From positions 30,697,732 to 30,761,731 of the forward strand of contig NC_088304.1 of assembly GCF_032854445.1 (NCBI RefSeq): a stretch of DNA of 64,000 bases, given 5' to 3'. Under the pieces are notes generated by a model, which did no database searches, was not told the DNA's origin, and worked only from the letters and a program-made list of their open reading frames with translations. This DNA comes from Liolophura sinensis (Eukaryota; Mollusca; Polyplacophora; Chitonida; Chitonidae). Shown here piece after piece: positions 14,701 through 61,345 of the stretch; the stretch's first letter is position 1, and each line of letters begins with the position of its first letter. The position numbers were made by a program, and so were the translations under genes.

Positions 14701-17700
14701 ACAGAGCAAAAATGTATCCGACCAACCAATCATCCAACAGAGCAAAAATGTAGCCCACCGACCAATCAACCAACAGAGTAAAAATGTATCCGACCGACCA
14801 ATCAGCCAACAGAGCAAAAATGTATCCGACCGTCCAATCAACCAACAGAGCAAAAATATATCTGCCCAACCAATCAACCAACAGAGCAAAAATATATCTG
14901 CACAACCTATCAGCCAACAGAGCAAAAATGTATCCGACCAACCAATCAGCCAACAGAGCAAAAATGTATCCGACCGTCCAATCAACCAACAGAGCAAAAA
15001 TATATCTGCCCAACCAATCAACCAACAGAGCAAAAATATATCTGCACAACCTATCAGCCAAAAGAGCAAAAATGTATCCGAACAACCAATCAACCAACAG
15101 AGTAAAAATGTATCCGACCAACCAATCAGCCAACAGAGCAAAAATGTATCCGACCGACCAATCAACCAACAGAGTAAAAATATATCTGCACAACCTATCA
15201 GCCAACAGAGCAAAAATGTATCCGACCAACCAATCAGCCAACAGAGCAAAAATGTAGCCCACCGACCAATCAACCAACAGAGCGAAAATATATCTGCACA
15301 ACCTATCAGCCAACAGAGCAAAAATGTATCCAACCAACCAATCAACCATCAGAGCAAAAATTTATCTGACTGACCATTTAACCAACAGAGCCAAAGTATA
15401 TCTGCCCAACCAATCAACCAACAGAGCGAAAATGTATCTGACCAACCACTCAGCCAACAGAGCAAATATGTATCCAACCGACCAATCGGCCAGCAGAGCA
15501 AAAATGTATCTGATCGACCTATCAGCCAAGAGAGCAAAAATCAGCAGAGCAACCAACAGAACAAACATGTATCTGATCGGCCAACAGAGCAAAAATGTAT
15601 CCGACCCACCAATCAACCAACAGGGCAAAAATGTATCCGACTGACCAATCATACCAACAGAGAAATAATGTATCCGACCCACCAATCAACTAACAGAGTA
15701 AAAATTTATCCAACTGACCAATCAACCAACAGAGCAAAATACAGAACTGCGTGTCAGAGCTAAAAATGTTTACCTTTTTGTAATTCCTTTCTTGGTCACC
15801 CTATTGTCAGCAAACGACTACAACAGTTTTATATTTTTATTTTTACATTTAAAAACTTTGTTTCAGATTCAGGTGTTGATGGCCCTAACAGGTCCCGCTG
15901 TGTTTACTGGAACATTCTACAGACATCCTCAGAGAGTTCATCTCAGACAGGAGTACCTTGTCACTGGCTCTGATCTTACTAAGGTAAGATAATATATACT
16001 TGCGCCTATTTCAATGTCTCTGTGTTCCCTACAATATCCACATGATTGTTAAGTCTTCTGTATATATATCTGCTGCAACAACTACAGATAGTCACCTTTA
16101 GCTTTCCATGAAAATACATTTACTCTTAAACAATGCTACTTTTGAAGTGTCTTCAGCATTTAAGATGACTTGAAGTAAATTTATATGGTGAAGGGCGATG
16201 TTGTTTTCCTATAGGTAATGGCACTGAAACAAGAATTACTGTTAATGCATGTTGATGATATTTATTCTGGTCAAATATGCATATAAATTTTGTGTTCATA
16301 TTTTGCTAAATAGGTTACAGACTTATTTGTGAGCAGTGTTATTCAAGACCTCAACAGAATGGAAAAGAAGCAAAACCATAAAGTTATAGGTATGTTACCA
16401 GGATTGCTACAATGTGTCAAGTGGCTTGTTGTTGGGCTGCTAGTGGCTTGCTACTGGGATGCCAGTGGCATGCTATTGGGTGGCCAGTGTCTTGCTGCAG
16501 GGTGGCCAGTGGCTTGCTGCAGGGTGGCCAGTGGCTTGCTACTGGCTTTCTATGGGGTGGGACTGGCCCTCGATCAATCCTGGGTCAAGTCACGCCTAAG
16601 ACCTTCAGTATGAAGGGGATAGTGCAACGACTGGTTGACCCTATCAGTATAATGGCTCCGGAGGGGTGACTTGCCTTCAGGAAGGCGTCTTAGTGAAGCA
16701 GCACTAGATAAAAGAGCGTTGGAAATCCGTCCTGCAACAAGGAGGCACATTACATACACTGTAAGAATTCCTTTGTCGTCATATGACTGAAGAATTGTTA
16801 AATACAACGTTAAACCCCAAGTACTCACTCACTTTATGGGTTAGGTTGGGTCTTGCTACTGGGTGGCAAGTCGCTTGCTACTAGACAGCTAGTGGTTTGC
16901 CACTGGATGTCTGGATTCTGGGTGGCCTGTGGTTTGCTACTGGAATGCTCCTGGCTTCCTACTGGGTGGCGAGTCACTTGATATTAGACAGCTAGTGGTT
17001 TGCCACTGGTTGGCCAGTGGTTAACTATTGGCTTGCTATTGGGTGTCTGGATTCTAGGTGGCCAGTGGGTTGCTACTGGAATGCTCATGGCTTCCTACTG
17101 TGGGGCAAGTGGCTTGGGGGTAGTGATTTGCTATTGGGCAACTAGTGGTTTGCTGCTGTGAAATGTAACATGGCTTGTACCTTTATACTGCTTATTGGAA
17201 ACAATAATATAGGTATAAGTCATAATAGGAAAAGGTGCAGAACGCGTCCTTGCTTGCATCATTTTATCATGGTGATATACATAGAAATTGGTGATGAAAT
17301 GTCATCTGTATAATCAGTGTGCTGTTTTCTGTCTAGGAATTCATGTACCCTCCCAGGATGCAACACCGCAAGAGACATTGAGTACAAATGAAACTGTGGA
17401 AGAAGTTGCGTTGGGTACGCCCTGGACTGATGTATTATGGGAAGTGGACAGAGTTCACTTGGAAAAGGTATGAGTCCTGCAGTGATTTGTATGGTAGGGA
17501 ATACAAAGTACTAGACACATGTGTTGTCAGCTTGTGGTTGAATGATTCAGAGGTGGCAGATATTCACACAAACTCACAACAACTCACAACTGTGGCAGAC
17601 GCAGCAGGATAAGGGTTTGTTCCCAGTTTCTCTGTGATTTGAAGCAGTATGGTGAATAAACCCCAAATATAAGTCATAAATTTTGCAGCAACCATCTTCA

Positions 17701-20700
17701 CTTCATCACATCAATCCATCATGAACCCAAAATGCAGTATCCCTTCATTAAATTCACGTTTTCATAATAACTTCATCAATAACGTTTTTTCTGGAGATCA
17801 CATTTCATTTGCAGGATAACTTTGTGAAAGCTGTCACGAATGCAGTCCTTGGTAACCAGATGGTTACTATGGAGGTAAGAGATAGATATGCACTGATTGC
17901 ACACTTTTTAATATTTTTCTGTTTTACTGAGTTAAACAATGTAAGCTTTTTTTTGCTTGTTTTATGCTTCTGTGAAGATGAAAATGACATAGAGTTCAGC
18001 ATGAGTAGTAATTAATTAAACTTGTCAACCTACTCCATGAAATACACGTGAAATGTTCAGGTATGTTGAAGTACTGCCTTTTGTTTTTTCTAGTGTGTGT
18101 TTTGTTTGGATCCAGATGCTCTAGTCTTTGTCTTTGGTGAAAAGCAGTCAACTTTGAACTTTGTGGAAATTAGTGAAAAAGACACCGATGAAGGGTAAGT
18201 GCAGATGTTTTTTATGTGTGTGTGCGGTGTGCGTGTGTGTGTTTTGTACTGTTTTTTTTGGGTTTTTTCGTGCCATTTTTTTTAACCTGTTCATTAATTT
18301 ATGTAATAAATCACCTAAAATGTCATCCAAGTAGGTACATTTGTGGAAGCAAATAAATGTCATTTGATGTCTGCTGAAAAAGTTAATTTATTTCAGTAAG
18401 GTGTCAGCCTACCTGGCAAACAAACCCCCAAGCACCTTGTAGATCAGCAGAACTCTTACAATCAGGCAAGATGAGTTACCTGGCAAACAAACCCCCAAGC
18501 ACCTTCTAAAATCATCAGAACTCCTACAATCAGCCAAAATGAGTTACCTGGCAAACAAACCCCCAAGCACCTTCTAAAATCATCAGAACTCCTACAATCA
18601 GCCAAAATGAGTTACCTGGCAAACAAACCCCCAAGCACCTTCTAAAATCATCAGAACTCCTACAATCAGCCAAAATGAGTTACCTGGCAAACAAACCCCC
18701 AAGCACCTTCTAAAATCATCAGAACTCCTACAATCAGCCAAAATGAGTTACCTGGCAAACAAACCCCCAAGCACCTTCTAAAATCATCAGAACTCCTACA
18801 ATCAGCCAAAATGAGTTACCTGGCAAACAAACCCCCAAGCACCTTCTAAAATCATCAGAACTCCTACAATCAGCCAAAATAAGTTACCTGGCAAACAAAC
18901 CCCCGAACACCTTCTAAGATCAACAGAACTCCTGCAATCAGCCAAAATGAGTTACCTGGCAAACAAACCCCCAAGCACCTTCTAAAATCATCAGAACTCC
19001 TACAATCAGCCAAAATGAGTTACCTGGCAAACAAACCCCCAAGCACCTTCTAAAATCATCAGAACTCCTACAATCAGCCAAAATGAGTTACCTGGCAAAC
19101 AAACCCCCAAGCACCTTCTAAAATCATCAGAACTCCTACAATCAGCCAAAATAAGTTACCTGGCAAACAAACCCCCGAACACCTTCTAAGATCAACAGAA
19201 CTCCTGCAATCAGCCAAAATAAGTTACCTGGCAAACAAACCACCAAGCACCTTCTAAGATCAACAGAGCTTCTACAATGAGCCAAAATAAGCTACCTGGC
19301 AAACAAACCCCCGAACACCTTCTAAGATCAACAGAACTCCTGCAATCAGCCAAAATGAGCAGATTAGTCGTGAGGAACTTTAGGTCAGATATGAGCATGT
19401 TGCTCCTTAGATGGACTAACCATGTGAGAAAAAAGAAGCTAAATATTTGTGTTAAAGTTACATGCATATGGGCTAAAAGGAGCAGAGACAAATTAATCAA
19501 GAAGCCTTTGTCATGTCTTTTGTATATTGAGAGAGAAAAAATCAGAATTTCTTAGTTAATTTGTTTCAGTTGATTGGTCGACTTCATAACTTATTTATCT
19601 GTCCAGTTTCCTCCCACTGATGTGGGGGTGTAAAACTCCTAATCAAAACAAAGTCAATAAATAAATCAAAACTTTTTTAAATGATTTTAAAAAAGTAATG
19701 TAAACATACTATTAATTGAAAAGAAATGAAAACTTTGACATGTTGTGATGCCAGGTTATCGACATTCACTCAGTTCCCACTGGCGACCCTTCACGAGGGC
19801 GTCTTCCTGAAGAAGTCGCATGCCGAGGCATACATGGGGATGTTCTTACCCCAGCTGCTAGGACAGAAACCCCACAGACTGGTCGTCCACGATAAAGCCA
19901 GCTCAGTTACCATGACAACCAAGAGGGGGGACAAGAACAGCACAGCAGCTACCAAAGGTACTTCAGTATGCAAATATAGTACTGGCTATTTGTACATGTA
20001 GTTTAATACCGTACCTGGGAAGGTCTGCCAGAAACCTGCGGATTTGTGGGTTCTCACCTGAGCTTTGCCCGGCTTCCTCCCACCCTAATGCTGGGCGCCG
20101 TCATACAAGTGGTATATTCTTGAGTACGGCATAAAACACCAATCAAAAAACATAAAAATGTAGATTAATGTTTAGTTATTTTGGGAGTTGAAGAAGCCCG
20201 GCATAAATCATTAACGTCCAAATATGCGTACCTTATTGTTGGATGACCATTTGGCTTATTGTCACCATGGGCCCATGGTCAGTGAGAGCGGGGGTGGGGG
20301 AAATGTACAAGTTCCCTGTCTAAGACCCAGTTTAGACTCGCACCTTGTGTGCCCAAGCAGTTGAAAGGCAGGCACCGCTAACAACTCTCTCAGTTAGGCA
20401 TTCAGGTCATGAAGTATCTGTTTTAGGCAGCAAACTTCAGCCAGGACCAAAGGGAGGTATGCCGAAACTGTCAACTTTGGTCTCAGTCAAAAAGCTCTTC
20501 AAAGACAAAGCAGCCAAGTCGAAAACCGTTCAGCTGGATGGGTTTAGGTTTGAGGGGATGGGTGCTGAAGGACCTTACGCTTCTCAAATCACCGGGCCTA
20601 TAAGGTGGGTAGATAAGTATTGGCCGGGTAGTTGTTCACAGAGACATGCCACCAGCTCACCACCAGCTCACCACCAGCAAAATTTGTATCTGGCTTCTTA

Positions 20701-23700
20701 CTCCACAAACTCTTACCTATATTTCCCAGACACCTGTTTTTCAAAAGCCAGTAATTTTTCTGAAGCATTCTTAATACCAAGTATTGTTTGAAGTCAGAAA
20801 GTTCATCATCATTACCAAAAAGGAATTTTATTAGGATGCAATGTTTGAGGATGTGAATTGCCACCACACCAACCCACTTATATAAGACTGTACCATTTCT
20901 AACAAACACAAACCAGTCAAAGATGTGTTACAGTCTTGGAACATTACCTTACTGATGTGCTGATCCCTTTGGCCAGAGAAGATTCATTCATGGTACAGTC
21001 ATGTGACAATCATGACACAATCACATTGCAATCATGGCACAATCATGTTGCAAATTTTGTACAATCTTGGAAAGTGTATCTTATTTCTTTTATTAGCAGA
21101 ACTCTATGGTAGAAGATGTCTCAGTTCATCCCAGAGATAGAGCTTCTTTATAATGGTATAATCATGGTACAGTCATGGTACAATCTTGGAACATAGATGT
21201 AATTTCTCTGGTACATCATGGTACAGTCATGTTACATGACGGTATGATCATGTTACAATGATAGTACAATCATGTACAACCATGACCATACACTCATGTT
21301 GGAGTACCTTGGTCTTGTTTAATACAATCAGGAGACAATCTTTTTCTTATTTGCAGATCTCTGTGGCAAGAGAAGATGTCTCGGCTAATCCCGGAGTTAG
21401 ACCTGTTTGAATGTCTCCACCTCATTATATTGCAGGCTGTAATGGATGGGTAAGACTTCTGTATATCAATCCTATCATCCTGTAGATTTTATCACTTGCA
21501 ATCTTAATACTGTTTGGTATTTATTTATTTGGTGGGAGAGTCCGGGGGAAAAACGCGCACAACCATCCACAGGTTGCTGAGAAAGCTTCCCAAGAACAAA
21601 TGGAGAGGAAGGCAGAATGATGATACTTTAAATCCCAATCTGAGTTATTCTGACTGTGGACTGAGGAAGTATGTGTGTACTGCTGAGCGAGTGTGTAGTT
21701 GCCATGACATTCTCATATGTCTCTATTGCAAATATGATGACCCGAATGATGAAAAAGTGCCATTAAACCTAACAAACAATGATTTGTAAAAATCATACTA
21801 AACTAATGAAGAGCTAACTCAAACCTCACAGCATCTCTGGTATTTTTTCCCCTTGTCTTTTGAACAAATTATGCTCTGAGGATCCATTCTACAGCTCACA
21901 GAAGGACACTGAGTACATAAATATTTAAAGCTAGCTTGTTAAACATCATTTTCAGCATGTTTCATGTCATACCAAAACCATTATCAGGAGAGTGTTCAAA
22001 ATGTAGCGGGCAATGACATATATGCATTGTGCAGTATATATGTCATTGCCTGTTCCATTTTGAACAATCTCCTGATGATGGCTAAATAAAAAGCCGAAAT
22101 ATTGAGTCACAATGAAATCTTTTTTTCGGAGTTACACTACTCGTGTATTACGCTAAACTCATCAGTGGAACTACAGGACTACCAAAACAATGTAACATCA
22201 TCTGCTATAGGATAATACACTATAATCTTTCCGTCAATACTCTACAACCGTTTCAACAGTACACTAAAACTGTCCCAACAATACACTACAACCATTTCAG
22301 CAATACACTACAACCATTTTAACAATACACTACAACTGTCCCAACAATACACTACAACCGTCCCAACAATACACTACAACTGTCCCAACAATACACTACA
22401 ACCATTCCAACAATACACTACAACCATTCCAACAATACACTACAATCATTCCAACAATACACTACAACTGTCCCAACAATACACTACAACTGTCCCAACA
22501 ATACACTACAACTGTCCCAACAATACACTACAACTAGTCCAACAATACACTACAACCATTTCAGCAATACACTACAACTGTCCCAACAATACACTACAAC
22601 CATTCCAACAATACACTACAACCATTCCAACAATACACTACAATCATTCCAACAATACACTACAACCATTCCAGCAATACACTACAACCATTCCAACAAT
22701 ACACTACAACTGTCCCAACAATACATTACAACTGTCCCAACAATACACTACAACCATTCCAACAATATACAACTGTCCCAACAATACACTACAACCATTT
22801 CAGCAATACACTACAACCATTCCAACAATACTCTACAACTGTCCCAACAATACACTACAACTGTCCCAACAATACACTACAACCATTTCAACAATAAACT
22901 ACAACCATTCCAACAATACACTACAATCATTCCAACAATACACTACAATCATTCCAACAATACACTACAACTAGTCCAACAATACACTACAACCATTTCA
23001 ACAATACACTACAACCATTCCAACAATACACTGCAACCGTTCCAACAATACACTACAACTGTCCCAACAATAAACTACAACTGTCCCAACAATACACTAC
23101 AACCATTCCAACAATACACTGCAATCATTCCAACAATACACTACAACTGTCCCAACAATACACTACAACTGTCCCAACAATACACTACAACTGTCCCAAC
23201 AATACACTACAACCATTTCAACAATACACTACAACCATTCCAACAATACACTACAACCGTTCCAACAATATACTACAACTGTTCCAACAATACACTACAA
23301 CCATTTCAACAATACACTACAACTGTCCCAACAATACACTACAACCGTTCCAACAATACACTACAACTGTCCCAACAATACACTACAACCATTTCAGCAA
23401 TACACTACAGCCATTCCAACAATACTCTACATCTGTCCCAACAATACACTACAACTGTCCCAACAGTACACTACAACTGTGCCAACAATACACTACAACC
23501 ATTCCAACAATACACTACAATCATTCCAACAATACACTAGAATCATTCCAACAATCCAACAATACACTACAACTGTCCCAACAATACACTACAACCGTCC
23601 CAACAATACACTACAACCATTCCAACAAAACACTACAACCATTCCAACAATACACTACAATCATTCCAACAATACACTACAACCGTTCCAGTCAGGATGT

Positions 23701-26700: not shown

Positions 26701-29700
26701 TGGTACTCGGTCTAGCTATTAGAGTTTGACTGTTCTGTGTTTTATTTTGATTTATTTATTTATTTGACTGGTGCTTTATGCTGTAATCAAGAATATTTCA
26801 CTTATACAACGGTGGCGTGCATTATGGTGGGAGGAAATTGGGCAGAGTCCCATGGAAAAGTTACGATCATCTGCTGGCAGACTTTCCCACGTACGGTCTA
26901 TTTTTTACGACATCGCTTGATCAGATCCAGCTCATACTGCTTCAGCTATAGACAATTAAATCAGAACAGTTAGCTGTCGGGTATCTAGGAAAGTTTGATA
27001 ATTTAATTAATATGATCACTCTGTGTTTCCGCAACACATCAAGGACCCGCCATCATATAAGTGAAACTTCTGGAGTGCAGTGTGAAGAGCACCAATCAAA
27101 GAAATAAATGGAAGCAGTAAAAAATATGTAAAGTTTCAAAGATCTTCCTACAAAAAGCCACTGTTGCTTTTTGACTGGAACACTGGAAAGCAATTCAGAG
27201 GTCATATTTTATATTTCCGATTCATACAATGAAAACTTGGTGTATCCATGTCGAAATCTGAATGAAATATTGATGGGTAAGGTTTTGTCTTTGTCTCTTC
27301 ATCCTCAGCTGACATCCACCTTACAGCAGCTGAGTCATCTCTGTCAGACATTGTTCATCTCATCAACAGAAGCTGTGATTCATCTGTGTCCACATGTACA
27401 GGTCAGAAATACACTTGTCCCATCTCTTTATCTGGTCTAGCTCCTGGTTACCTGGGCCTAGCTTCTGGCTCCTGGCTGTCTGGCCTAGCTCCTGGCTGCC
27501 TGGGCCCAGCTTCTGGCTGCCTGGGTCTAGTTCCTGGCTGCCTGGGTCTAGTTCCTGGCTGCCTGGGTCTAGCTCCTGGCTGCCTGGCCTAGTTCCGGGC
27601 TGCCTGGCCTAGCTCCTGGCTGTCTGCGCCTAGCTCCTGGCTGTCTGGGCCTAGCTCCTAGCTGTCTGGGCCTAGCTCCTGGCTGTCTGGGCCTAGCTCT
27701 TGGCTGTCTGGGTCTAGCTCCTGGCTGCCTGGGACTAGCTCCTGGCTGTCTGGGCCTAGCTCCTGGCTGCCTGGGCCTAGTTCCTGGCTGCTTGGCCTAG
27801 CTCCTGGCTGTCTGAGCCTAGCTCCTGGCTGTCTGGGTCTGGCTCCTGGCTGCTTGGCCTAGCTCCTGGCTGTCTGAGCCTAGCTCCTGGCTGTCTGGGC
27901 CTAGCTCCTGGCTGTCTGAGCCTAGCCCCTGGCTGTCTGCCCTAGCTCCTGGCTGCTTGGCCTAGCTCCTGGCTGTCTGAGCCTAGCTCCTGGCTGTCTG
28001 GGCCTAGCTCCTGGCTGCCTGGGTCCAGCTCCTGGCTGCTTGGCCTAGCTCCTGGCTGTCTGAGCCTAGCTCCTGGCTGTCTGGGTCTGGCTCCTGGCTG
28101 TCTGGGCCTAGCTCCTGGCTGTATGGGCCCAGCTCCTGGTTGTCTGGGCCCAGTTCCTGGCTGTCTGGGCCTAGCTTCTGGCTGCCTGGGTCTAGCTTCT
28201 GGCTGTCTGGGCCTAGCTCCTGGCTGTCTGGGACTAGCTCCTGGCTGCCTGGGCCTAGCTCCTGGCTGCCTGGGCCTAGCTCCTGGCTGCCTGGGTCCAG
28301 CTCCTGGCTGTCTGCCCTGGCTCCTGGCTGTCTGCCCTGGCTCCTGGCTGTCTGGGTCCAGCTCCTGGCTGCCTGGCCTAGCTCCTGGTTGTCTGGGCCC
28401 AGCTCCTGGCTGTCTGGTCTAGCTCCTGGCTGTCTGGGTCTAGCTCCTGGCTGTCTGGGCCCAGCTCCTGGTTGTCTGGGCCTAGCTCCTGGCTGCCTGG
28501 GCCTAGCTCCTGGCTGCCTGGGCCTAGCTCCTGGCTGCCTGGGCCTAGCTTCTGGCTGCCTGGGCCCAGCTCCTGGCTGCCTGGCTGTCTGGCCTAGCTC
28601 CTGGCTGTCTGGGCCCAGCTGTGAATAAAGTCCATTAGCAGTAAAACCAGGTATTAATTTTAGTCTGGTGGCTCATCTTGTTTTTGAACACCTGGTCTGC
28701 TCTATTTACCCAGTATGTATACAAGCAGGAATGTATAGTTTCTTCTTTCTCACATGGTTAGACCATCTAATGAACAACATACTCGCATAGTGACTTTTCC
28801 ATAAAGCTGGGAAAGAAATGTTATATTCTGTTTTCAGCACAACTGATATCTGTTCCAAAAAGTAAAAGAATTAGGGTAAAGTGCTATTAGTTTTATATTA
28901 GGCCAAGATTTGTATTAAGATTTAAGCCCGGCTTAACTTTTAATACACTTTTAATCAGTCGGCCCATGTTCTTTAAGAGGTGATCGAAGTTGTAATGAGT
29001 GTCAAGATGTAAAAAAGAAAAAAAAAGCCCAAGTCCATGTAGATGTAATATTTGTACTTATCGGTACTGTCCCAGCAAACATCTGGAATGATTACCAGTA
29101 CTTTGAAAGATGAAGGCCTGCCTCTGCCTGTATTTCAGGTCACATTGTTGTAGGCTTATATGTCCTGCATTTGACACAATCAACATTCGGACTCTTCAAT
29201 GAGAAATGGCTAGCGAATAACCACCTTTTAAGTCTTCCGTTACCCTTCTTTCACGTTTGAGGCCCCTGACTACCCTCATTATGTCATTACATCTCACTAA
29301 ATCAATTAAAACAATGTTATTGCTCACTTTTTTTTGTAGAAATGCCTAAAAAATGCACAAAAAGCACATGCACAAAAGATCCTCCTGGAAGCAAAGGAGA
29401 AACCCCGGACTAAAACAAAGCAGGTACTTTTGTGCTTTTTTTTTTTTTCGTTTTTGTTTTTATCCCATTGCATGTTATTCATCATATGAATAACATAGTG
29501 GTAGACAATCTAAATGACGGAAGTGCTAACTTTCAAATTCCCCTGTCAAATCTGAACCTGAAAGAAGTATAGGGGAATACCCAGAAAGCAATCAGGGAGT
29601 TTGTCTGTCACCTACATGGAGCGTACAGCTTTGGTTCATTTTGTCTTGGTCTGCTTTGTTGTTTTGTTTTCTTGATTGCACGTTTATGTATGTACTGTGA

Positions 29701-32700
29701 ATATATGTATGATATAGCTTTATTTTAGATGCTCAGCTCCTATTGTAAGGATCTCATACATAATAAAAGGCTTTAATTGTTAAATATATTGTGGCTTTCT
29801 TGATTGAATTCGTTGTGGTCGCAGTTAAATTCGCGTCTAAAATCTGATACATCTGCATTCAGTTCAGCTAGTGAGTTTGACATTTTGCATACACTTCAAA
29901 GTCTCCATAGCTTGAAATTTCCTTTTTTTTTGCACTTGTAGATCAAAGGATCGAAAGGTCAAAATCCAAACCCTGCATCAGCCCTGTCAGAGTATGGTGT
30001 GGTTGTTCATGGGATGGAAGAGCTGAATCTCAGGAAGCATGATCTGTGGGGTATTTGATAATGGAAAATATGAACTCTGGGATATTTGATAATGGAAAAT
30101 ATGGTCTGTGGGGTATTTGATAATGGAAAATATTATCTCTGGGATATTTGATAATGAAAAATATGATCTGTGGGGTATTTGATAATGGAAAATATGATCT
30201 CTGGGATATTTGATAATGGAAAATATGATCTGTGGGGTATTTGATAATGGAAAATATTATCTCTGGGGTATTTGATAATGGAAAATATTATCTCTGGGGT
30301 ATTTGACAATGGAAACGGAAGATCTCTGAGGGTATTTGATAATGGAAAAGGAAGATGGCAGGGGTATTTGATAATGGAAAATATGATCTCTGGGGTATTT
30401 GATAATGGAAAATATGATATCTGGGGTATTTGACAATGGAAAAGGAAGATCTCAGGTATTTGACAATGAAAAAGGAAGATCTCTGAGGGTATTTGATAAT
30501 GGAAAAGGAAGATGGCTGAGGTATTGGATAATGGAAAATATGTTCTCTGGGGTATTTGATAATGGAAAATATGATGTCTGGGGTATTTGACAATGGAAAA
30601 GGAAGATCTCGGGGTATTTGACAATCAAAAAGGAAGCTCTCTGAGGGTATTTGGTAATGGAAAATGAAGATGGCCAGGGTATTTGATAATGGAAAAGGAA
30701 GATGGCTAGGGTATTTGGTAATGGAAAAGAAAGAAGGTTGGGGTATTTAATAATGGAAAGGAAGATGGCTGGGGTATTTGATAATGGAAAATATGATCTA
30801 TGAGGTATTTGACAATGGAAAAGGGAGATCTCTGAGGGTATTTGGTAATGGAAAAGGAAGAAGGCTGGTTTATTTGATAATGGAAAAGGAAGATGGCTGG
30901 GGTATTTGATAATGGAAAAAATGATATCTGTATTATGTAATAATGGGAAAGGAGGATAGCTGGGGTATTGGATAAAGGAAGATGGCTGGGGTATTTGGTA
31001 ATGGAAAAGAAAGAAGGTTGGGGTATTTGATAATGGAAAAGGAAGATGGCTGGGGTATTTGGTAATGGAAAAGAAAGAAGGTTGGGGTATTTGATAATGG
31101 AAAAGGAAGATGGCTGGGGTATTTGATAATGGAAAAAATGATATCTGGGGTGTTTGATAATGGAAAAAGTGAAATCTGGGGTATTTGATAATGAAAAACA
31201 TGATATTTGGGGCATTTGATAATGGAAAACATTATGTCTACGGTATGTGATAATGAAAAAAAGATGTCTGGGATATTTAAAATACAGAAAACAATGTCTG
31301 GGGCATTTGATAATGGAAAACCTTATTTCTAAGGTATATGATAATGAAAAAAAGATCTCTAGGGTGTTTGATAATGGAAAATATGATATCTGGGGTATGC
31401 AGTAACGGAAAATATGATATCTGGAGTATTTGATAATGGAAAACACTGGAGTATCTGATAATGAAAAAACAAAAAATGCCTGGGTATTTGACAACAGAAA
31501 ACTGTGTGTCTGGGGCATGAAAAAAAAACGTAGTTGGGTTATTGGAAAACATGATATCTGGTATTGATAATGGAAAACATGTCCAAGGTAATTTGATACT
31601 AAAAAAGGAAGATGTTTGGTAATTGAAAACATGATATATGGGACATTTGATAATGGAAAACATTACTTCTGGGGGCATGGGAAGGTCTGCCAGAAACCTG
31701 AGGATGGTCGTTGTATAAGTGAAATATTCTTAAGTACAGCGTAAGACCCCAGTAAATATATCTAGGGGTATGTGATAATGAAACAAAGAATGTCTGGGGT
31801 ATTTGATAATGGAAAACATGATGTCTGAGGTATGTGACATAAATGGAAAAAAAAGATACGTGGGGTATGTAATGATTGAAGACGTGATATCTGAGGTATT
31901 TAATTATCGAAAACAGATCGTCAGGTATCAGATGGAGGTATTTAAGAAATGAAAATATCTGGGATATTTGAAAGATTAATGTCAAGATTTATTATTTATT
32001 CATAATAGCCTCCCTGTATATATTGCTCAGTTAAGTTTTAAAAAATATTTAAAAAAGGATAAATTAATCTGAGTAACAAGGTACCTAAAATAACTAGATA
32101 TCAAGGTTGGTTCTATGCACTTTTTCTGATTGTCGTCGCTGAATTACGTCACACAGATGTAACCTTACGATGTTTGCTGTTCTGGTATACGGTTATGAAA
32201 ACAGGTCGTAGAAGAACAGGTTGTAATCTTGATAATTAGAACCAGTAGCAAAATCTCAACGCAAATCCTTTTATAATGAATTTAGACAGAATGTCTTGAG
32301 TGCATGTACAGTGTGTGTGGTGATGGGAAACATGACTGACAAGTTCCATGTAGATCAGTTCAGGGTATCTGGAAGCTGATGCTCACCCAAACTGCTTGAA
32401 GTGATACAAGTCACAAAAATCAAATAATTCACATTGGATTTTTGTTATGTGAATGTAGCCAGCATGAGAACCGGATGAGAAAAATTTGTGACTGTTTAAG
32501 AGTTGATGGTTGATGGATTCCAAGCTGAATGGCACAATTTGTGACTGTTTAAGAGTTGATGGTTGATGGATTCCAAGCTGAATGGCACAATTTGTGACTG
32601 TTTAAGAGTTGATGGTTGACGGATTCCAAGCTGAATGGCACAATTTGTGACTGTTTAAGAGTTGATGGTTGACGGATTCCAAGCTGAATGGCACAATTTG

Positions 32701-35700
32701 TGACTGTTTAAGAGTTGATGGTGGATGGATTCCAAGCTGAATGACACAATTGTTATTATTTATTATTTTATCAGTTTTCTTGTATGCATTTCTGTTTTCA
32801 GTGATTCGTGTGGCGGAGTGTGCGAAGACGGATCCATCTCCAAAAGCCATCAATTCAGAGGCTGTTCTTATGAAGGTCTGTCACACTAAAGGTTCATTCA
32901 GTATACATGGGTCCTAGAGGGACTTTACTATAGTGCCAGAAGGCTTCATTCTAGTGCCTGATGTGGTACATGTACTACAGAACCAGTAGACCTTCATGGT
33001 AGTGCCCAATGGGCTTTACTGTAGCCCAGAGGACTTCATAACAGCACCTTATGGGCTTTACTGGTGGCTTTACTGTATTACCAGCAAGGCTTCATATTAG
33101 TGCCTGATGGCTTAACGTGAACTATAGTGCCAACAAGGCGTCATATTAGTGCCTGATGGCTTTACTTGAAGTACAGTTCCAGGAAGGCTTCATAACAGTG
33201 TTTGGTGGCTTCAGTAAAGTGCCAGAAGGTTCATAATAGTGAATTTGGCTTTAGTACAACGATAGAGGGTTTCATGGTTGTGTTATCCTGTCTGGTATGT
33301 CTTCTTCGGCATGGTGCTTTTATTGAGGCAGCACTAGAAATAGGTCATTTAAGACTTTTGTAAAATATAAAAACATTGCTTTAATATATCGGAAACAATA
33401 CAGGCTGAAAACCATGGCTGCTCCATACCAGCGCTGCTCCATGCCAGAGCTGCTCCATGCCAGAGCTGCTCCATGCTACAGCTGCCCAGTGTCTGTAGCT
33501 TTCTCATCGTAGCTCTCTATCTATCAGCATATTCATGGTTTGAAGCACCCGGGTTCCTCGCAAGGGTCAGGAGGTGATAAATAACATGGAGGTAAATGGG
33601 TAAAATGCTAATTTTTGCCGATTCCTAAAGTGTAAAGTACTGCAGCACATTGGATGTATCATACTTGCAGAATTTGATACATTCTGGTTATTTTCCCAGA
33701 AAGAATTTCTGACCTAAAAGTTACATTTTCCATCTTTTATGCTAAAGTCTCCTACAAAGCCTATCTCATCTGGGTTAAACTCGTTTCACCTCCAGTGCTC
33801 TAGTCATGTGACGATGAAGTGTTCAGGTGATTGTCTCAGAGCAGGTATAATATCACTGCAAAATCATGAATAAAAACAAGGAGAGCTGCAGTTGCGTGAT
33901 GGTTTGTGATACTGGGTAGCCTTCTTTCTGGTGATGGACACATTGGCCATGTTGGTATGTGAATGTAGTTCTGGTGTTCATGTGGAAACGTAGACCAGTA
34001 GCTAGAAGTTGTCATTGTGTTGTTGTTGTAGTATCTGTTAGACATTCACCTGGATGACGTGTGGTGGAATTACCTGGTGGAACTCTTCAGTAGTGACGTT
34101 ACACCTCCTAATCCCTACCCTCGTCTTATCAACAGCCTGCGGCGGGCAGCCCTGAAGTACGTCATCCTCACAAGTAACATAGTCCTAATATTAAAATACG
34201 TAGTATCCATGCATTCGTTCAGTGCTCATATTTAGGAATCGTTTGTGCTGTAAATCTTCAACTTTTTTGACATCTGAAGCACTGTTTTCAGTGGAATGTA
34301 TGCATACAGTCACTATGAAAATGACACCAAAAATGGTTGGTTTGTGTCACGTAAAGATGTAAGCTTTACAAAATTGTGCAGATGATTTCTCTAAATTCTT
34401 TTATGTTTATATATTTCTGAGCTCGCAGTGGTGGTTGAAAAGGTTGGAGAAGGCGGGTAATGCTTGTACATTGAAAGCTCATAATCCTCATGATGTAGTG
34501 TTTTCATGACTGGGTCATCCTCATGATGTAGTGTTTTCATGAGTGGGTAATCCTCATGGTGTAGTCTGCATGAGTGGGTAATCCTCATGGTGTAGTCTGC
34601 ATGAGTGGGTAATCCTCATGGTGTAGTCTGCATGAGTGGGTAATCCTCATGGTGTAGTCTGCATGAGTGGGTAATCCTCATGGTGTAGTCTACATGAGTG
34701 GGTAATCCTCATGGTGTAGTCAGCATGAGTGGATAATCCTCATGATGTAGTCTGCATGAGTGGGTAATTCTCATGTTGTAGTCTGCATGAATGGGTAATC
34801 CTCATGGTGTAGTCTGCACGAGTGGGTAATCCTCACGATGTAGTCTGCACAAGTGGGTAATCCTCACGATGTAGTCTGCACGAGTGGGTAATCCTCACGA
34901 TGTAGTCTGCACGAGTGGGTAATCCTCATGATGTAGTCTACAAGAGTGGGTAATCCTCATGATGTAGTCTGCAAGAGTGGGTAATCCTCATGATGTAGTC
35001 TGCATGAGTGGGTAATCTTCATGATGTAGTCTGCATGAGTGGGTAATAATTTGTCGTATATTAATACCACAAAAATGTATACTAGAATAGATTTTACATG
35101 TTTCGTAAACATTTCACTTGCATGCCACAGTCCGATCTCCTGGCTTATAACTGATTGGGGCCTGCAGCAACCTGCAAATGGCCGTGGGTTTCTGGAACCC
35201 GGTTTCCTCCCACCATAATGCTGGTTGCCACCATATAAGTGAAATATTCTTGAGTATGGCATAAACACCAGTCAAATAAATAAATATACCTGATTGGCCT
35301 GTTGAGAATTTGTAGTCTGGCTTACAGTGGAAGTTAACATGCAGTTTTAGATTATACATAACTGTGTTTGTCATAACATACACTAATGACAGAAAATTTT
35401 CCCACCCAAAAATGCTTTTTAGAGTCAAGTAAAGGTGCTGAGGGTTACATTTGTCCAGTAAGATATGATCCTACATGTACCTACCTGAGAAACCTCAAAA
35501 CACCTGTGTAAGTTCAATAGCACTCTCAAAATGCGGCAGAATGTGCAGCGCGTGTGCAGAATGTGCAGTGTGTGTGCAGAATGTGCAGCACGTGTGCAGA
35601 ATGTGCAGCACATGTGCAGAATGTGCAGCACGTGTGCAGAATGTGCAGTGTGTGTGCAGAATGTGCAGCACGTGTGGAGAATGTGCAGCACGTGTGCAGA

Positions 35701-38700
35701 ATGTGCACCGCGTGTGCAGAATGTGCAGTGTGTGTGCAGAATGTGCAGCACGTGGTGGAGAATGTGCAGCACGTGTGCAGAATGTGCAGTGTGTGTGCAG
35801 AATGTGCAGCACGTGTGCAGAATGTGCAGTGTGTGTGCAGAATGTGCACCGCGTGTGCAGAATGTGCACCGCGTGTGCAGAATGTGCACCGCGTGTGCAG
35901 AATGTGCACCGCGTGTGCAGAATGTGCAGTGTGTGTGCAGAATGTGCAGTGTTTGTGCAGAATGTGCACCGCGTGTGCAGAATGTGCACCGCGTGTGCAG
36001 TGTGTGTGCAGAATGTGCACCGCGTGTGCAGAATGTGCACCGCGTGTGCAGAATGTGCACCGCGTGTGCAGAACGTGCAGTGTGTGTGCAGAATGTGCAC
36101 CGCGTGTGCAGAATGTGCACCGCGTGTGCAGAATGTGCAGTGTGTGTGCAGAATGTGCACCGCATGTGCAGAATGTGCAGTGTGTGTGCAGAATGTGCAG
36201 CACGTGTGCAGAATGTGCAGCACGTGTGCAGAATGTGCAGCACGTGTGCAGAATGTGCAGTGTGATCAATGACCACACCGTGTATTTGTGTCAAAACATA
36301 AAAGTCTGATGCCAGAGCAAGAAAATGTTTGATGTGCTATATATACTGTAATTCCTCAACCTTTTCACATGATTGCAAGGTGATGATTCAAGCATATTCT
36401 GAGGACCTTTCTCTGTGTGAGCTGATAAAATTATACTTTTAATGAAGCCCTGAAATTGGTTAACCCAACCAATGTTTTTTCGTGTCCAAAATGAAATTTA
36501 AAATGTGCGCTGAAAATTGCACTGAAATTTGCTTTTTCATATGGAGAAAGGTTGATGCAATATGTAATGTGGTGAGAACAAGTGATGTATGAAACTTGTT
36601 GTAGATTAGAATAAGTTGTAGCTGCAAGAAGTCTGGCATAATATGACTGAATAATGATGAAGGCAATGTCAAACCCCAACATGTCTGGTTTTAATAGTTC
36701 CCTGTTTTTGGAAAGGTGACATTTTGTTTCATACCAAATCAACCATATTTAAGATCGCTGCTTAACATTTATTTTTTGCATGCAATCTTGAATAGTATTG
36801 GTAGATATAAAATCTTGAATTTTCTCTTTCAGAATGGATCTGTGGTTTGAGGAGGAAGAAATGTTAAGCCAGAAGATTTTCAGTGGTGTCTCTAAACCCA
36901 CCCATGATTTCCCTTTTGTACATGTCATACCAGGATGTGGAGCACATGGTAAACTTGACGAAATGTTACCCATTTTAATATTTATAGGTTTATCCTTTCT
37001 CAGTAACTATGAGCACAGTTTGTACCTGGATGCCCTTTTATTTGAAAAAAAGAAGAATATGTTTATGAAGATCAGGCATTCTAGTGAGGGCTGACAGTAT
37101 TGTAATAAACATAAATAGGGGAGCTTTGAGTTCAAACTCTTTTGTCGATGAAGGTAGAAAAAGTCCAACTGCATCATGTGACTTGTCAGAAATGTTAGGC
37201 AACTATTTTTGATCGCTTTCACTATAACACAGGAGTCTGAAAAAAAGTTTCATAAAAAGTCATTTAGATTAGACGAATGTTGGAAAGAATTGAGAATATG
37301 AACATATGTGAACTTAAGTTCCTAAGGAAAGAGGTGTCGTTTGTGCCTCTGAAAAAGGGTTAGACAGGTGATTACTAAATTTATGTCAACAGACGTTGCC
37401 TAACATTTTTGACAAGTTACATGACACTTTAGGATTTTTTACCTTTGACAACAGAAGACTTTCAACTGGGAACTCCCCTGTTGTATTTAGTAGTAGATCC
37501 CATCTGACTCTAAACATTCCTTCCCTGTAATGAACGCATGTTGACATAATAAACTTTTAACCTGTCTTGATGGGAGTCGGGTAGTCCCTGTGCTGATTTA
37601 GCCCTCATGTATGAACAACATCATGTTTCAGGGCCTCTATCTAGAGTTATGTCCCTTGATGTAAAATGTGCCTCAAATAGACAAGCTATCTCCCCTTAGT
37701 GTTCTTAGGATTGTGACTGAATTTATCTATCTGCTCCAGATCCAGGATGAGCTTAAGTAGTACAGTGTTTTCTTCTAAAAAACATTTTCGAGGAATCAAC
37801 ATTGTTAGATTGAAATAACATTTCTTTCTTGTTCATATTAGCAGATATTATATCAGTCTTCTTTACTGGAGGCTATTGCTTTGTTTAACGATAAGTAGGC
37901 CTTAGTTGTATCATTTCTCAGTGATGTTGTGTTCTTGCCATCAGTATATATTGTATCTTTTCATGATTACATGATCTGCAGGCATTATGTCAGTTCTCAG
38001 TGATGTTATGTTACAGGATCTGCTGGAATTTTGTCAGTTCTAAGTGATATTATGTTACAGGATCTGCTGGCATTATGTCAGGTCTCAGTGATGTTATGTT
38101 ACAGGATCTGCCGGCATTGTCAGTTTTCAGTGATGTTATGTTACAGGATCTGCAGGCATTATGTCAGCTCTCAGTGATGTTATGTTACAGAATCTGCCGG
38201 TATTGTCAGTTCTCAGTGATGTTATGTTACAGGATCTGCAGGCATTATGTCAGTTCTCAGTGATGTTTATGTTACAGGATCTGCAGGCATTTTGTCAGTT
38301 CTCAGTGATGTTATGTTACAGGATCTGTGGGCATTATGTCAGTTCTCAGTGATGTTATGTTACAGGATCTGCCGGCATTGTGTCGGTTCTCAGTGATGTT
38401 ATGTTACAGGACCTGCCGGTATTGTCAGTTCTCAGTGATGTTATGTTACAGATCTGCCGGTATTGTCAGTTCTCAGTGATGTTATGTTACAGGATCTGCC
38501 GGCATTGTGTCGGTTCTCAGTGATGTTATGTTACAGGACCCTGCCGGCATTGTCAGTTCTCAGTGATGTTATGTTACAGGATCTGCAGGCATTATGTCAG
38601 TTCTCAGTGATGTTATGTTACAGAATCTGCCGGTATTGTCAGTTCTCAGTGATGTTATGTTACAGGATCTGCAGGCATTGTGTCAGTTCTCAGTGATGTT

Positions 38701-41700
38701 ATGTTACAGGATCTGCTGACATTGTGTCGGTTCTCAGTGATGTTATGTTACAGGATCTGCTGACATTGTGTCGGTTCTCAGTGATGTTATGTTACAGGAT
38801 CTGCAGGCATTAATGTCAGTTCTCAGTGATGTTATGTTACAGAATCTGCCGGCATTGTCAGTTCTCAGTGATTGTTATGTTACAGGATCTGCAGGCATTA
38901 TGTCAGTTCTCAGTGATGTTATGTTACAGGATCTGCAGGCATTATGTCAGTTCTCCAGTGATGTTATGTTACAGGATCTGCTGGAATTTTGTCAGTTCTC
39001 AGTGATGTTATGTTACAGGATCTGCTGCATTGTGTCGGTTCTCAGTGATGTTATGTTACAGGATCTGCCGGCATTGTCAGTTTCTCAGTGATGTTATATT
39101 TACAGGATCTGCCGGCATTGTCAGTTCTCAGTGATGTTATGTTACAGGATCTGCAGGCATTATGTCAGTTCTCAGTGATGTTATGTTACAGGATCTGCTG
39201 GCATTATGTCAGTTCTTAACGCTGAAGGTTACTTCACCCTATCAAGCCTGGCTCAAGACTTCATACCAAAGTTTTACATCCAGATGAAGGGACTGTTTCG
39301 GGTATGTCAGTGCACGGTTAATATGCTCATGTAAACTTTTATGTACAAAGTGGAGCTCACCCAGAGTCGGGTCGGTCTGAGAAGTTTAGGCACATCATAT
39401 ATTGTTTTGCTAGTGCCCTTACATCACTTGTATTTAAGCTGTTGTAAACAATGTGATCTAGATTGTATTAAACTCCAATTTTTTCCTATACATACAACTT
39501 GAGAGGCATCAGACCAGTCTCACTTAATGACATGTTGTCTCAGCACTAGACTTTGGTTGTCACCATAGGGCGGATATCACAGGTGTTCATACCAGGGCGG
39601 ATATCACAGGTGTTCATACCAAGGCGGTTATCACAGGTGTTCATACCACATGTTTAATAGTCAATTCCTTAACGGAAACGACGGTTAGGTCATGCGAAAG
39701 TATTATACAGGACACCATGGATCATACATAGAAATTAATACAGAAGTTATTTGGGAAGCAAGGAAACAGAAATGGACATTCTCCAAACATGTTTCACCTC
39801 TCCACTTTGAGCGGAAGTTTAGTTGTCTTTCCAGAGGATTGCGCGAAGCTTAGTTGTCTTTCCAGAGGATTGCGCGAAGCTTAGTTGTCTTTCCAGAGAT
39901 TGCGCGATTGTTGATAGCTGACAAGTCAATGTACCAGTATAGAGAAAGATTTTTTTTGTTTGCTGCTTTAAATTTTGTCACCTTTGTTGTCTAATATCTT
40001 GTCATTAAAGCAGGTATAATAGAACAGAAATAAAGATACTTTACCTAGTCTAATGTTGTTCTTTTAGTACAGTGAATGTCGAAGGCTTGAAAATTTAGAG
40101 ATTTGACGTCTGTGGTGCCTTGTTTCAAACAGTCACCTCTAGAACATTTAATGTTATAAAACGAACCAAAAAGCCTAGGAAAAATATAATTATTTTTTAA
40201 TTAAACTGCACACATCATAGCTTTTGTATGTAATAAAAGTTTACTTACCTGTTTATATGTCCACTCACCAGGTGGCGCGTGTGACAGCAGTGACCGGCCA
40301 ATCAGCTCTGTATGGCGTTCTGGTCCCCCATTTGTCCACACTAGAACTGGATGAGCACATCTACATCAAGGGACCAGAGGGGTGTTCTACAGAGGCCATC
40401 CAGCTTTGTGCTAACATTGGTATACATAAAGTCTATTTTAATATTACCTGTATGATTACATCTGCCAAATAGCTCACACATTAGAAAATGTTTTCTTGGT
40501 CAGTTTCTTGCATTTTCTTAAAATTTCTTACTTGAGAAAACAGAAAGATGTATTCCCTTCTGCAGATCAGGAAGGGTTTAAGTAGTATAACATTGTTGAA
40601 TTTGTAAGATTTTGTTTATCACAAGATGAGTTTGTTGTTGTAGTACATAAGGAAATCTTGGATCTGATCAACAAGGGAGATCACCCAGTCACAGGCGTGT
40701 ACTTCGGAGCTCACCAGAATAGGCTCACCATGCGCGATGTCAAAAAGCGCCCACAGGCCTTTCTGTCTGAGTTTGAGGCCACCTGTCACAAGAAACAACA
40801 GATTTTCCTCAAGGTGAGTATATTATTTACCTTTTCTGACTGGTCATTTTAATTTATTCACAAGCTGTCAATTTTGTGAGAATTGGTAGGCCGTTTGCGA
40901 AATCTTACGTTCATTGAATACATATGGTGTGCCTATCTGTATGTCACCTGTAAAAGTGTTTGCCAGTAATTTGTCCAAGGTCGGTGGTTTATGCGATGAC
41001 ATACGAGTTTTCTTCACTCATAAAAGTAACTACCGTTGTATTGTATATTAGCAAAAATTGTTGTTCGTAGTGTGAAACAAATATCAAATAAGTCGATAAA
41101 TGTCTTTTTTTAGTACGAGTAGCATGATATAAAGTAAAGGTTTCGTGATAAATAAGCAAAACTATGTCGAAAATAAATGTACATTTATTGTCACTATAAA
41201 TGTTTCCTAAACAGGCATACATTGCTGAAGGTTGGAGGTATTATCCTGTGATCAAACACTACAGATTTCACTGGTTGACTGAGAAGAGGTAAGGTTGTAA
41301 AATTTCCTTTTGGGTTAGTTGTCCGAATCTTTACTTACTTATGTTTCTTCTTTTATTTTGTAATCAAAATTGAGGAAGTTCTAAAAACAAACTCCAGCTA
41401 AGTGGCCATCGTACATACATGTGCAAACCACAGTTAACTCGACATCTTGTTGTCAGCAGGTGACTGCTAGTGGAATGTTAATAGCCTGCTATGAGTATGC
41501 TAGTGGCTTGTTTTATACTTAGAATCTCGAGTTAATATAATACTATATAATATATATATATGCTATATTAATGCAGTACATGTATGTTTTTTTTGTTTAA
41601 TTATTTTATTTTTTTTGTCTTTCCACAGTTCTGAACCATTTTACCCAACTGATCCATCAGAGTTTTATAAGAGCATCTTCTTTGAGAAAGAAAGAGTAAG

Positions 41701-60035: not shown

Positions 60036-60148
60036 TCAATCGGGTTATGTTTGGGCCAATCAGGCGCGAGTTATTTCTATAACTGGAGAACGCGTCTCTT
60101 TCCGCTTACGTCACTCGAACTCTGCTTTGCATTTCACCCTATGTGCGT

Positions 60149-61345
60149 GAGGTAAGAGTGACAGTGGGGTAAAAGTGACGGTGGGGTAAGAGTGACGGTG
60201 GGGTAAGAGAGTTACAGGTTTGTAAGAGTGACGGTGGGGTAAGAGTGACGGTAGGGTAAAAGTGAACTTAGGGTAAGAGTTACGGGTTTGGTAAGAGTGA
60301 CGGTTTGGTAAGAGTGACAGTGAGGTATGAGTGACGGTGGGGTAAGAGTCACGATGGAGTAATAGTGACCTTGGGGTAAGAGTGACGGTGGGGTAATAGT
60401 GACCTTGGGGTAAGAGTGACGGTGGGGTAAGAGTGACAGTGGGGTAAGAGTGACGATAGGGTAAGAGTGACAGTGGGGTAGAAGTGACGGTGGAGTAAAA
60501 GTGACGGTGGAGTAAGAGTGACGGTGGGGTAAGAGTGACGGTGGGGTAGGAGTGACGGTGGGGTAGGAGTGACGGTAGGGTAAGAGTGACCGTGGGGTAA
60601 AAGTGACGGTGAGGTAAAAGTTACGGGTTTGTAAGAGTGACGGTGGGATAAGAGTGACAGTGGGGTAAGAGTGACGGTAGGGTAAGAGTGACCATGGGGT
60701 AAAAGTGACTGTGAGGTAAGAGTTACGGGTTTGTAAGAGTGACGGTGGGATAAGAGTGACGGTGGGGTAGGAGTGACGGTAGGGTAAGAGTGACGATAGG
60801 GTAAGAGTGACGGTGGGGTAAGAGTGACGGTGGGGTAAGAGTTACGGGTTTGGTAAGAGTGACGGTTTGGGAAGAGTGACGGTGGGGTAAGAGTGACGGT
60901 GAGGTCAGAGTGACGCTGGAGTAAAAGTGACAGTGGAGTAAGAGTTACGGGTTTGGTAAGAGTGACGGTTTGGTAAGAGTGACGGTGGGGTAAGAGTGAC
61001 GATGAGGTAAGAGTGACGGTGGGGTAAGACTGACGGTGAGGTAAGACTGACGGTGGGGTAAGAGTGACAGTGAGGTAAGAGTGACGGTGGGGTAAGAATG
61101 ACAGTGGGGTAAGAGTGACCTTGGGGAAGGGTGACAGTGGGTTAAGAGTGACCTTGGGGTAAGAGTGACGGTGGGATAAGGGTGACAGTGGGGTAAAAGT
61201 GACGGTGGGGTAAGAGTAACGGTACGGTAAGAGTGATGGTGGGATAAGAGTGACGGTGAGATAAGAGTAACGGTAGAGTAAGAGTGACGGTGGGGTAAGA
61301 GTGACCGTGGGGTAAGAGTGACAGTGGGGTAAGAGTGACGGCTTC
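60149..61345. repeat. 17-bp G-rich minisatellite
   Basis: About 70 copies of GACGGTGGGGTAAGAGT with variants (GGTTTG, CCTTGGGG, ATAGGG). The plus strand is almost free of C apart from the GAC. Blocks such as GAGTTACGGGTTTGGTAAGA recur at least four times as a higher-order mark. The short open minus frame ([11 protein letters not shown] type) is an artefact. Confidence 0.95.

What the first reader, a model, noticed from the sequence alone, without database searches (positions are those of the whole stretch)
37916..39216. A minisatellite made of ~27 copies of a real splice acceptor plus the start of its exon
The 44-bp unit equals the last 20 bases of intron 22 (including TTATGTTACAG) plus the first ~25 bases of exon 23. 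Only the last copy continues into the exon with the right phase (G|GA TCT GCT GGC ATT). Because 44 is not a multiple of three and one frame ends in TGA in each unit, choosing almost any upstream copy yields a premature stop. The gene must therefore pick one of about 27 near-identical acceptors. That could be a tolerated burden, or a tunable switch that lowers productive mRNA as the array expands.
Basis: partly seen in the sequence, partly recalled or inferred. Interest (0 to 1): 0.82.

Follow-up and report, generated by a model that had tools for sequence, protein, structure and literature searches.

The report
One splice site repeated 28 times
In a mollusc gene the signal that marks the start of an exon, together with the first bases of that exon, has been copied about 28 times in a row; similar repeats are known from lancelet genes and some human genes, and they recur in this genome, giving a natural test of how cells choose between near-identical splice sites.

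Summary
The array (37967-39216, about 29 units of 44 bp) holds 28 copies of one splice acceptor; the last is the predicted in-frame acceptor of exon 39192-39301. All 27 upstream copies would give a premature stop. By a matrix made from this gene's other sites, the true site is no better than its copies. The genome is most likely a mollusc's. Among 156 exon matches in myosin, kinesin and dynein genes I judged 7 junctions to lie inside such arrays. This is the kind of repeat called a "mirage" in lancelet genes, where RT-PCR is reported to suggest normal splicing; minisatellites at exon boundaries are also reported in human paralogs. Best reading: intronic minisatellites that grew across a junction and are tolerated because splicing mostly uses the copy next to the exon body. 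That step is inferred, and published human data back it better for donors than for acceptors. No RNA was available. Over 9 arrays the splice cores are neither clearly kept nor decayed, so a selected switch has no support.

The parts
36833..36948 (+). exon before the acceptor array, ends in phase 1 with donor gtaaac
   Evidence: open frame, acceptor tttctctttcag, phase chain
37967..39216 (+). 44-bp minisatellite, 28.7 copies, whose units hold the acceptor TTATGTTACAG and the start of the next exon
   Evidence: TRF; 28 acceptor copies listed
39192..39301 (+). exon that follows; its first 25 nt belong to the last array copy (predicted boundary)
   Evidence: phase chain; exonic part 25 nt; in-phase rival acceptors score lower
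29942..30050 (+). exon whose donor (GGG|GTATTT) is the first copy of a donor-bearing array
   Evidence: phase chain; 12 exonic nt in the array
30039..31443 (+). 31-bp minisatellite, 45 copies, most with a GGGGTATTT-like donor; reading past the true donor meets TGA at once
   Evidence: TRF; 22 further places match the 40-nt junction at 75% or more; GT kept in 37 of 45 aligned units; 37 decoy donors, 37 premature stops
32802..32875 (+). exon joined to the donor at 30050 in phase 1
   Evidence: phase chain

Best explanation
This is a 'mirage' minisatellite: a tandem repeat whose unit straddles an intron-exon junction, so that the copies carry copies of the splice acceptor. Shown from sequence, given the predicted boundary: a 44-bp stretch made of about 19 nt of intron end and 25 nt of exon start was multiplied towards the intron, and the units kept the AG. 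Inferred: the spliceosome mostly uses the last copy, the one next to the body of the exon, because the 110-nt exon is defined across itself by its own downstream donor and the nearest acceptor, while the flanking introns are long; the other 27 acceptors are then skipped as intron. Use of an upstream copy would give a premature stop and, by inference, a transcript removed by nonsense-mediated decay. The array is thus a mostly neutral passenger, one of many minisatellites in this genome's introns that happen to cross a junction.
For: 28 acceptors, 27 of 27 upstream ones non-productive. The true acceptor scores 5.4 bits, the same as most copies; 20 of the 158 AGs in the intron score higher, among them copies at 38277 and 39105 with 11.1 and 11.7, so its own sequence does not mark it out; the last copy leaves the repeat for good only at 39217. 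A second case in the same gene: donor at 30050, rank 18 of 159 GTs. 7 more spanning arrays, by my judgement, among 156 exon matches of motor-protein genes. Over 9 arrays, 150 decoy sites: 148 premature stops, 2 frameshifts, 0 in-frame insertions (with L015 rechecked). Splice cores lie at mean percentile 0.41 of variability within their units, combined p 0.17 for conservation and 0.71 for decay. Array density falls towards exons: 25 of 170 points at 700 nt, 14 of 170 at 100 nt, 4 of 170 at the match edge, 0 of 85 at the centres. Lancelet mirages are reported not to disturb splicing (PMC3087553 passages; PMC3902484 passage). In human minigenes with two identical donors and exon definition, the donor nearer across the exon was used exclusively in all five constructs (PMC9225289, section 8). 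The introns here are 2243 and 2751 nt (coordinates).
Against: No RNA evidence: which copies are used is not known. For acceptors the published support is weaker: human data prefer the upstream of two acceptors overall, and with long introns and near-equal strength this preference is reduced, by the text not clearly reversed (PMC9225289, section 9); the older intron-centric rule cited there would even favour the wrong copies. The exon has no homologue in the libraries I searched (Pfam, PDB), so its start rests on phase and site score; an in-phase acceptor at 39228 (1.7 bits) would put the whole array inside the intron, and 3 of 27 other acceptors of the gene score lower than that. The phase chain is not fully independent: I shifted four exon ends by one base between and chose the donor at 34156 with phase in mind; the exons on either side of both arrays were not shifted. 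In this array the intronic half of the unit, ending exactly at the AG, varies much less than the most variable half (0.008 against 0.120), which could hint at selection on the copies; but half ratios of 12 other arrays of the window run from 0.00 to 0.62 and the pattern does not repeat over the 9 arrays.
Confidence: 0.66

Rival explanations
1. A tunable switch: some upstream acceptors are used, their products are destroyed, and the array length sets how much productive mRNA the gene makes.
For: Upstream copies are mostly of equal, some of better predicted strength and all 27 give premature stops; in this array the acceptor half is the least variable half; human data prefer upstream acceptors overall (PMC9225289, section 9); minisatellites at exon-intron boundaries of human paralogs are reported to give alternative splicing (PMC2812944, passages).
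Against: Splice cores are not clearly conserved over 9 such arrays; arrays of this kind occur in several unrelated genes and at donors as well as acceptors, as expected of a general mutational process; lancelet cases are reported to splice normally.
Confidence: 0.1
2. The true exon starts at 39228 (or another AG after the array), the array is wholly intronic, and its resemblance to an acceptor plus exon start is accidental.
For: 39228 is in phase and open; several of the gene's acceptors are weak.
Against: 39192 scores 5.4 against 1.7 bits, and the frame stays open from 39192; 7 motor-gene arrays and the donor array of the same gene were also judged to span junctions.
Confidence: 0.12
3. Extra acceptors help: repeated weak sites recruit splicing factors and raise recognition of an exon whose own acceptor has a poor pyrimidine tract.
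For: The true acceptor has 7 pyrimidines in 13 positions; of the gene's 27 other acceptors one has 7 and the rest 8 to 12.
Against: No clear conservation of cores over 9 arrays; the acceptor of L021 lies in a T-rich context, so a weak site is not a condition (sequence).
Confidence: 0.06

Closest known systems
'Mirage' minisatellites of lancelet genes (Adh3, globins BflGb6 and BflGb9; troponin C and PGBD5 as reported)
   Same: Tandem repeat that spans an intron-exon boundary, at acceptors or donors; many but not all units carry AG or GT (PMC3087553 passages; PMC3902484 passage). Unit lengths of 31 and 44 bp lie in the 10-72 bp given there for Adh3.
   Different: Host most likely a mollusc, not a lancelet; 28 acceptors and about 45 donor units here against 6 and 3 units in the two BflGb6 haplotypes; seen at 2 of 56 boundaries of one gene and, by my judgement, at 7 of 156 sampled exon matches.
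Internal tandem repeats at exon-intron boundaries of human paralogs in segmental duplications (PMC2812944, abstract and passages)
   Same: Minisatellites (about 30-bp units) at exon-intron boundaries.
   Different: About 4 copies on average there; reported to create novel introns and alternative splicing; recent primate paralogs. I did not check whether their units repeat a splice site.
Competing identical splice sites and the exon-centric proximity rule (PMC9225289)
   Same: Equal sites compete; with exon definition the donor nearest across the exon is used (section 8).
   Different: Two competing sites there, about 5 to 45 here, and natural; for acceptors the human data show only a reduced upstream preference (section 9); usage not measured here.
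NAGNAG and other tandem acceptors (recalled)
   Same: More than one acceptor for one exon.
   Different: Copies lie 41-45 nt apart and extend over 1.2 kb; sites 20 nt or more apart are classed as first-step choices (PMC9225289).

Membership tests
mirage minisatellite | tandem array of minisatellite-size units | tested here: met
   TRF 44 bp x 28.7 and 31 bp x 45.0
mirage minisatellite | unit spans an intron-exon boundary, exon part included | tested here: met
   25 exonic nt at 39192-39216 and 12 at 30039-30050, given the predicted boundaries
mirage minisatellite | many copies carry the AG or GT signal | tested here: met
   28 copies with TTACAG listed; by alignment of units AG in 27 of 29 and GT in 37 of 45
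mirage minisatellite | regular splicing undisturbed (suggested by RT-PCR in lancelets) | not testable with these tools
   no RNA data
mirage minisatellite | length instability between alleles or somatic cells | not testable with these tools
   one assembly only
NAGNAG tandem acceptor | acceptors 3 nt apart | tested here: not met
   spacing 41-45 nt
recursive splice site | acceptor AG followed at once by donor GT | tested here: not met
   the 28 listed copies continue with GATC, AATC, ATCT or GACC

The most novel reading that the evidence does not exclude
In this mollusc a few per cent of splice junctions sit in arrays of near-identical competitors, and array length acts as a fast-evolving dial on the share of productive mRNA, different between individuals and perhaps between somatic cells.
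Probability: 0.08. Interest if true: 0.85.

Novelty: new member of a known kind. Interest (0 to 1): 0.5.

Why it matters
If splicing is accurate at these junctions, the cell chooses one of up to 28 acceptors or about 45 donors that hardly differ in their own sequence, so the choice must come from position relative to the exon body. Acceptor arrays are the sharper test: there the right copy is the last one transcribed, against any first-come rule and against the upstream-acceptor preference seen in human data. A genome with several such junctions in a small sample is a ready-made set of competition experiments that RNA-seq alone could read out. It also extends mirages beyond the lancelets they were named in, which bears on models of intron gain and of exon-boundary drift.

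Tried and rejected
The second DNA match in the genome (C10:29635647-29636383) looked like a relative array but is an unrelated 15-bp repeat. A protein search with exons around the array found 7 matches, all of them this gene's own exons. Gene identity: no Pfam match worth the name (best E 0.29) and no PDB relative (best E 0.54); the gene stays unidentified. The idea that the acceptor half is conserved by selection was dropped when it did not hold over 9 arrays; per array the core percentiles run from 0.05 to 0.96. A donor-over-acceptor bias (6 donors to 3 acceptors in the 9 arrays) is too small a sample to use. Lancelet origin of the genome was considered and rejected: 8 matches to the haemocyanin beta-sandwich family in a row on C8. 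That such rows are molluscan is recalled; the 14 control genomes, 0 of which match, name only prokaryotes where names are shown, so they do not separate animals. In one search, 17 rows were flagged; I judged by eye 7 as spanning (L012, L015, L019, L021, L037, L050, L073, the last less certain); L084 (4-6 exonic nt) and L027 (array starts 59 nt beyond the donor) were left out of the 7, and L011, L018, L025, both L033 rows, L035, L061 and L076 were taken as abutting, unclear or unrelated. The survey is of the best-scoring exon matches, not a random draw; some matches run over an intron or may share an exon. In one search L019 shows 14 decoys although its array has about 8 units: looser look-alikes were counted. 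A Daphnia tandem-repeat paper (PMC3152781) holds no mention of splice sites or exon-intron boundaries under the four terms searched.
Full report
What was checked. The window is C10:30697732-30761731 of a 609-Mb genome in 632 contigs. Eight matches to the haemocyanin beta-sandwich family lie in a row on C8; such rows are molluscan (recalled), so the organism is most likely a mollusc. Tandem repeats cover 23% of the window and 31% of the gene region; the array of the finding is one of many.

The array. TRF reports 37967-39216, period 44, 28.7 copies, 89% matches, and a dimer period of 86. A listing by the acceptor motif gives 28 copies from 38016 to 39191, spaced 41-45 nt, each with TTACAG; an alignment of all units finds the AG in 27 of 29. 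The last copy is followed by 25 nt of array sequence that are coding and then by unique exon. A DNA search of the genome finds the array only here; three further weak matches belong to an unrelated 15-bp array.

The gene. From open frames and splice signals I built 28 exons on the + strand, 10204-45435. Exons 2 to 28 join in phase at 26 of 26 junctions; the first exon does not join in phase, and an exon may be missing there. I chose the boundaries by eye; four ends were shifted by one base, none of them beside the two arrays. The joined protein is 1133 residues without a stop. Pfam and PDB searches gave no relative and a genome search no paralogue. The exon before the array, 36833-36948, ends in phase 1, and the exon after it, 39192-39301, is open only in that phase. 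Other in-phase open acceptors are 39213, 39228 and 39258, scoring -3.8, 1.7 and -0.7 bits against 5.4 for 39192. This is good but not final evidence for the boundary.

Consequences of the copies. Splicing to any of the 27 upstream acceptors gives a premature stop: 25 inside the array, 2 just beyond it. A matrix made from the gene's other 27 acceptors gives the true site 5.4 bits, the same as most copies (range 3.5 to 11.7); 20 of 158 AGs in its intron score higher. The site is thus not marked by its own sequence.

A second case in the same gene. A test of all 56 exon boundaries for copies of the 40 nt around them flags two: the acceptor at 39192 (23 further copies) and the donor at 30050 (22); the other 54 have none. 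The donor GGG|GTATTT of exon 29942-30050 is the first unit of the 31-bp array 30039-31443 (45 copies). It ranks 18th of 159 GTs. All 37 decoy donors counted give a premature stop.

Survey of the genome. I fetched 85 loci around exon matches to myosin head (30), kinesin (30) and the dynein AAA_6 domain (25) and examined 156 matches in them (44, 50 and 62). The scan flagged 17 rows. By eye, with TRF, seven arrays span the junction: L019 donor (66 bp x 8.1, 16 exonic nt), L021 acceptor (32 x 21.9, 9 nt), L015 donor (140 x 4.9, 113 nt), L012 donor (31 x 18.0, 16 nt), L037 acceptor (64 x 11.8, 23 nt), L050 donor (73 x 21.6, 54 nt) and, less surely, L073 donor (31 x 20.1, 29 nt). In L019, L037 and L050 the protein motifs at the junction are familiar ones of these motor domains (recalled), which points to the copy next to the exon body as the one used. 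A point test that needs no judgement gives the share of positions lying in repeats: 0 of 85 at match centres, 1 of 170 at 40 nt inside, 4 of 170 at the match edge, 6 of 170 at 20 nt outside, 14 of 170 at 100 nt, 15 of 170 at 400 nt, 25 of 170 at 700 nt. Some loci overlap, so the points are not all independent. Arrays thin out towards exons and sometimes cross the edge by a short way.

Is there selection on the copies? In the index acceptor array the least variable half-unit ends exactly at the splice AG (0.008 against 0.120 for the most variable half). Some other arrays of the window are as uneven. Over the nine spanning arrays the splice core lies at a mean percentile of 0.41 of its unit's variability (range 0.05 to 0.96), combined p 0.17 for unusual conservation and 0.71 for unusual decay. 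Of 150 decoy sites counted in the nine arrays 148 give a stop, 2 a frameshift and none an in-frame insertion; long out-of-frame extensions make this unsurprising.

Mechanism. The copies must be passed over, at least mostly, if the genes are to work. The local sequence cannot decide. The two exons are 109 and 110 nt long, the introns with the arrays 2751 and 2243 nt. For donors, human minigenes with two identical sites and exon definition used the one nearer across the exon exclusively (PMC9225289, section 8 read). For acceptors the same paper finds an overall preference for the upstream site, significantly reduced when introns are long (section 9 read); its abstract states the rule for both. 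The frames here require the first donor and the last acceptor. So the donor array is in line with the published rule, while the acceptor array needs a stronger effect than the human data show, or losses by decay. No RNA was available. Removal of mis-spliced products by nonsense-mediated decay is also inferred.

What is known. Tandem repeats across intron-exon boundaries were named mirages in lancelet Adh and described in lancelet globins, with RT-PCR suggesting normal splicing (PMC3087553, passages read); PMC3902484 (one passage read) adds troponin C and PGBD5 in lancelets. In human, minisatellites at exon-intron boundaries of paralogs in segmental duplications are reported to create novel introns and alternative splicing (PMC2812944, abstract and passages read). 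The Adh paper itself was not held. Searches showed me no report of such arrays in a mollusc; several of these lists were cut (15 of 35, 12 of 18, 12 of 105), I judged most papers by title and start of abstract, and most subscription journals are not held.

Verdict. The finding is real and its anatomy was read correctly. It is a mirage minisatellite, in what these searches suggest is a new host phylum, one of nine seen here in a small sample, and most likely a tolerated by-product of a minisatellite-rich genome. Its value is as a natural experiment in splice-site choice, above all at acceptors.

Noticed in passing
window 30039-31443: A 31-bp array whose first unit holds the donor of exon 29942-30050; a second junction-spanning array in the same gene.
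   Followed up: yes
L050, L037, L019, L012, L015, L021: Junction-spanning arrays in kinesin and myosin genes of the same genome, up to about 22 copies.
   Followed up: yes
L073 2481-3105: Dynein exon whose last residues (SAKDSSS) may be array-derived: the array may have replaced coding sequence at the exon end.
   Followed up: no
window 1-1592, 14076-15739, 22214-23690, 27437-28620, 34482-35047, 35536-36260, 60147-61341: Many further minisatellites with about 18 to 70 units; together repeats cover 23% of the window.
   Followed up: partly
window 20020-20150, 35180-35290: A recurring dispersed, SINE-like element (shared stretch around 'ATATTCTTGAGTA' followed by an A-rich tail); I recall similar ones in molluscs, not tested.
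   Followed up: no
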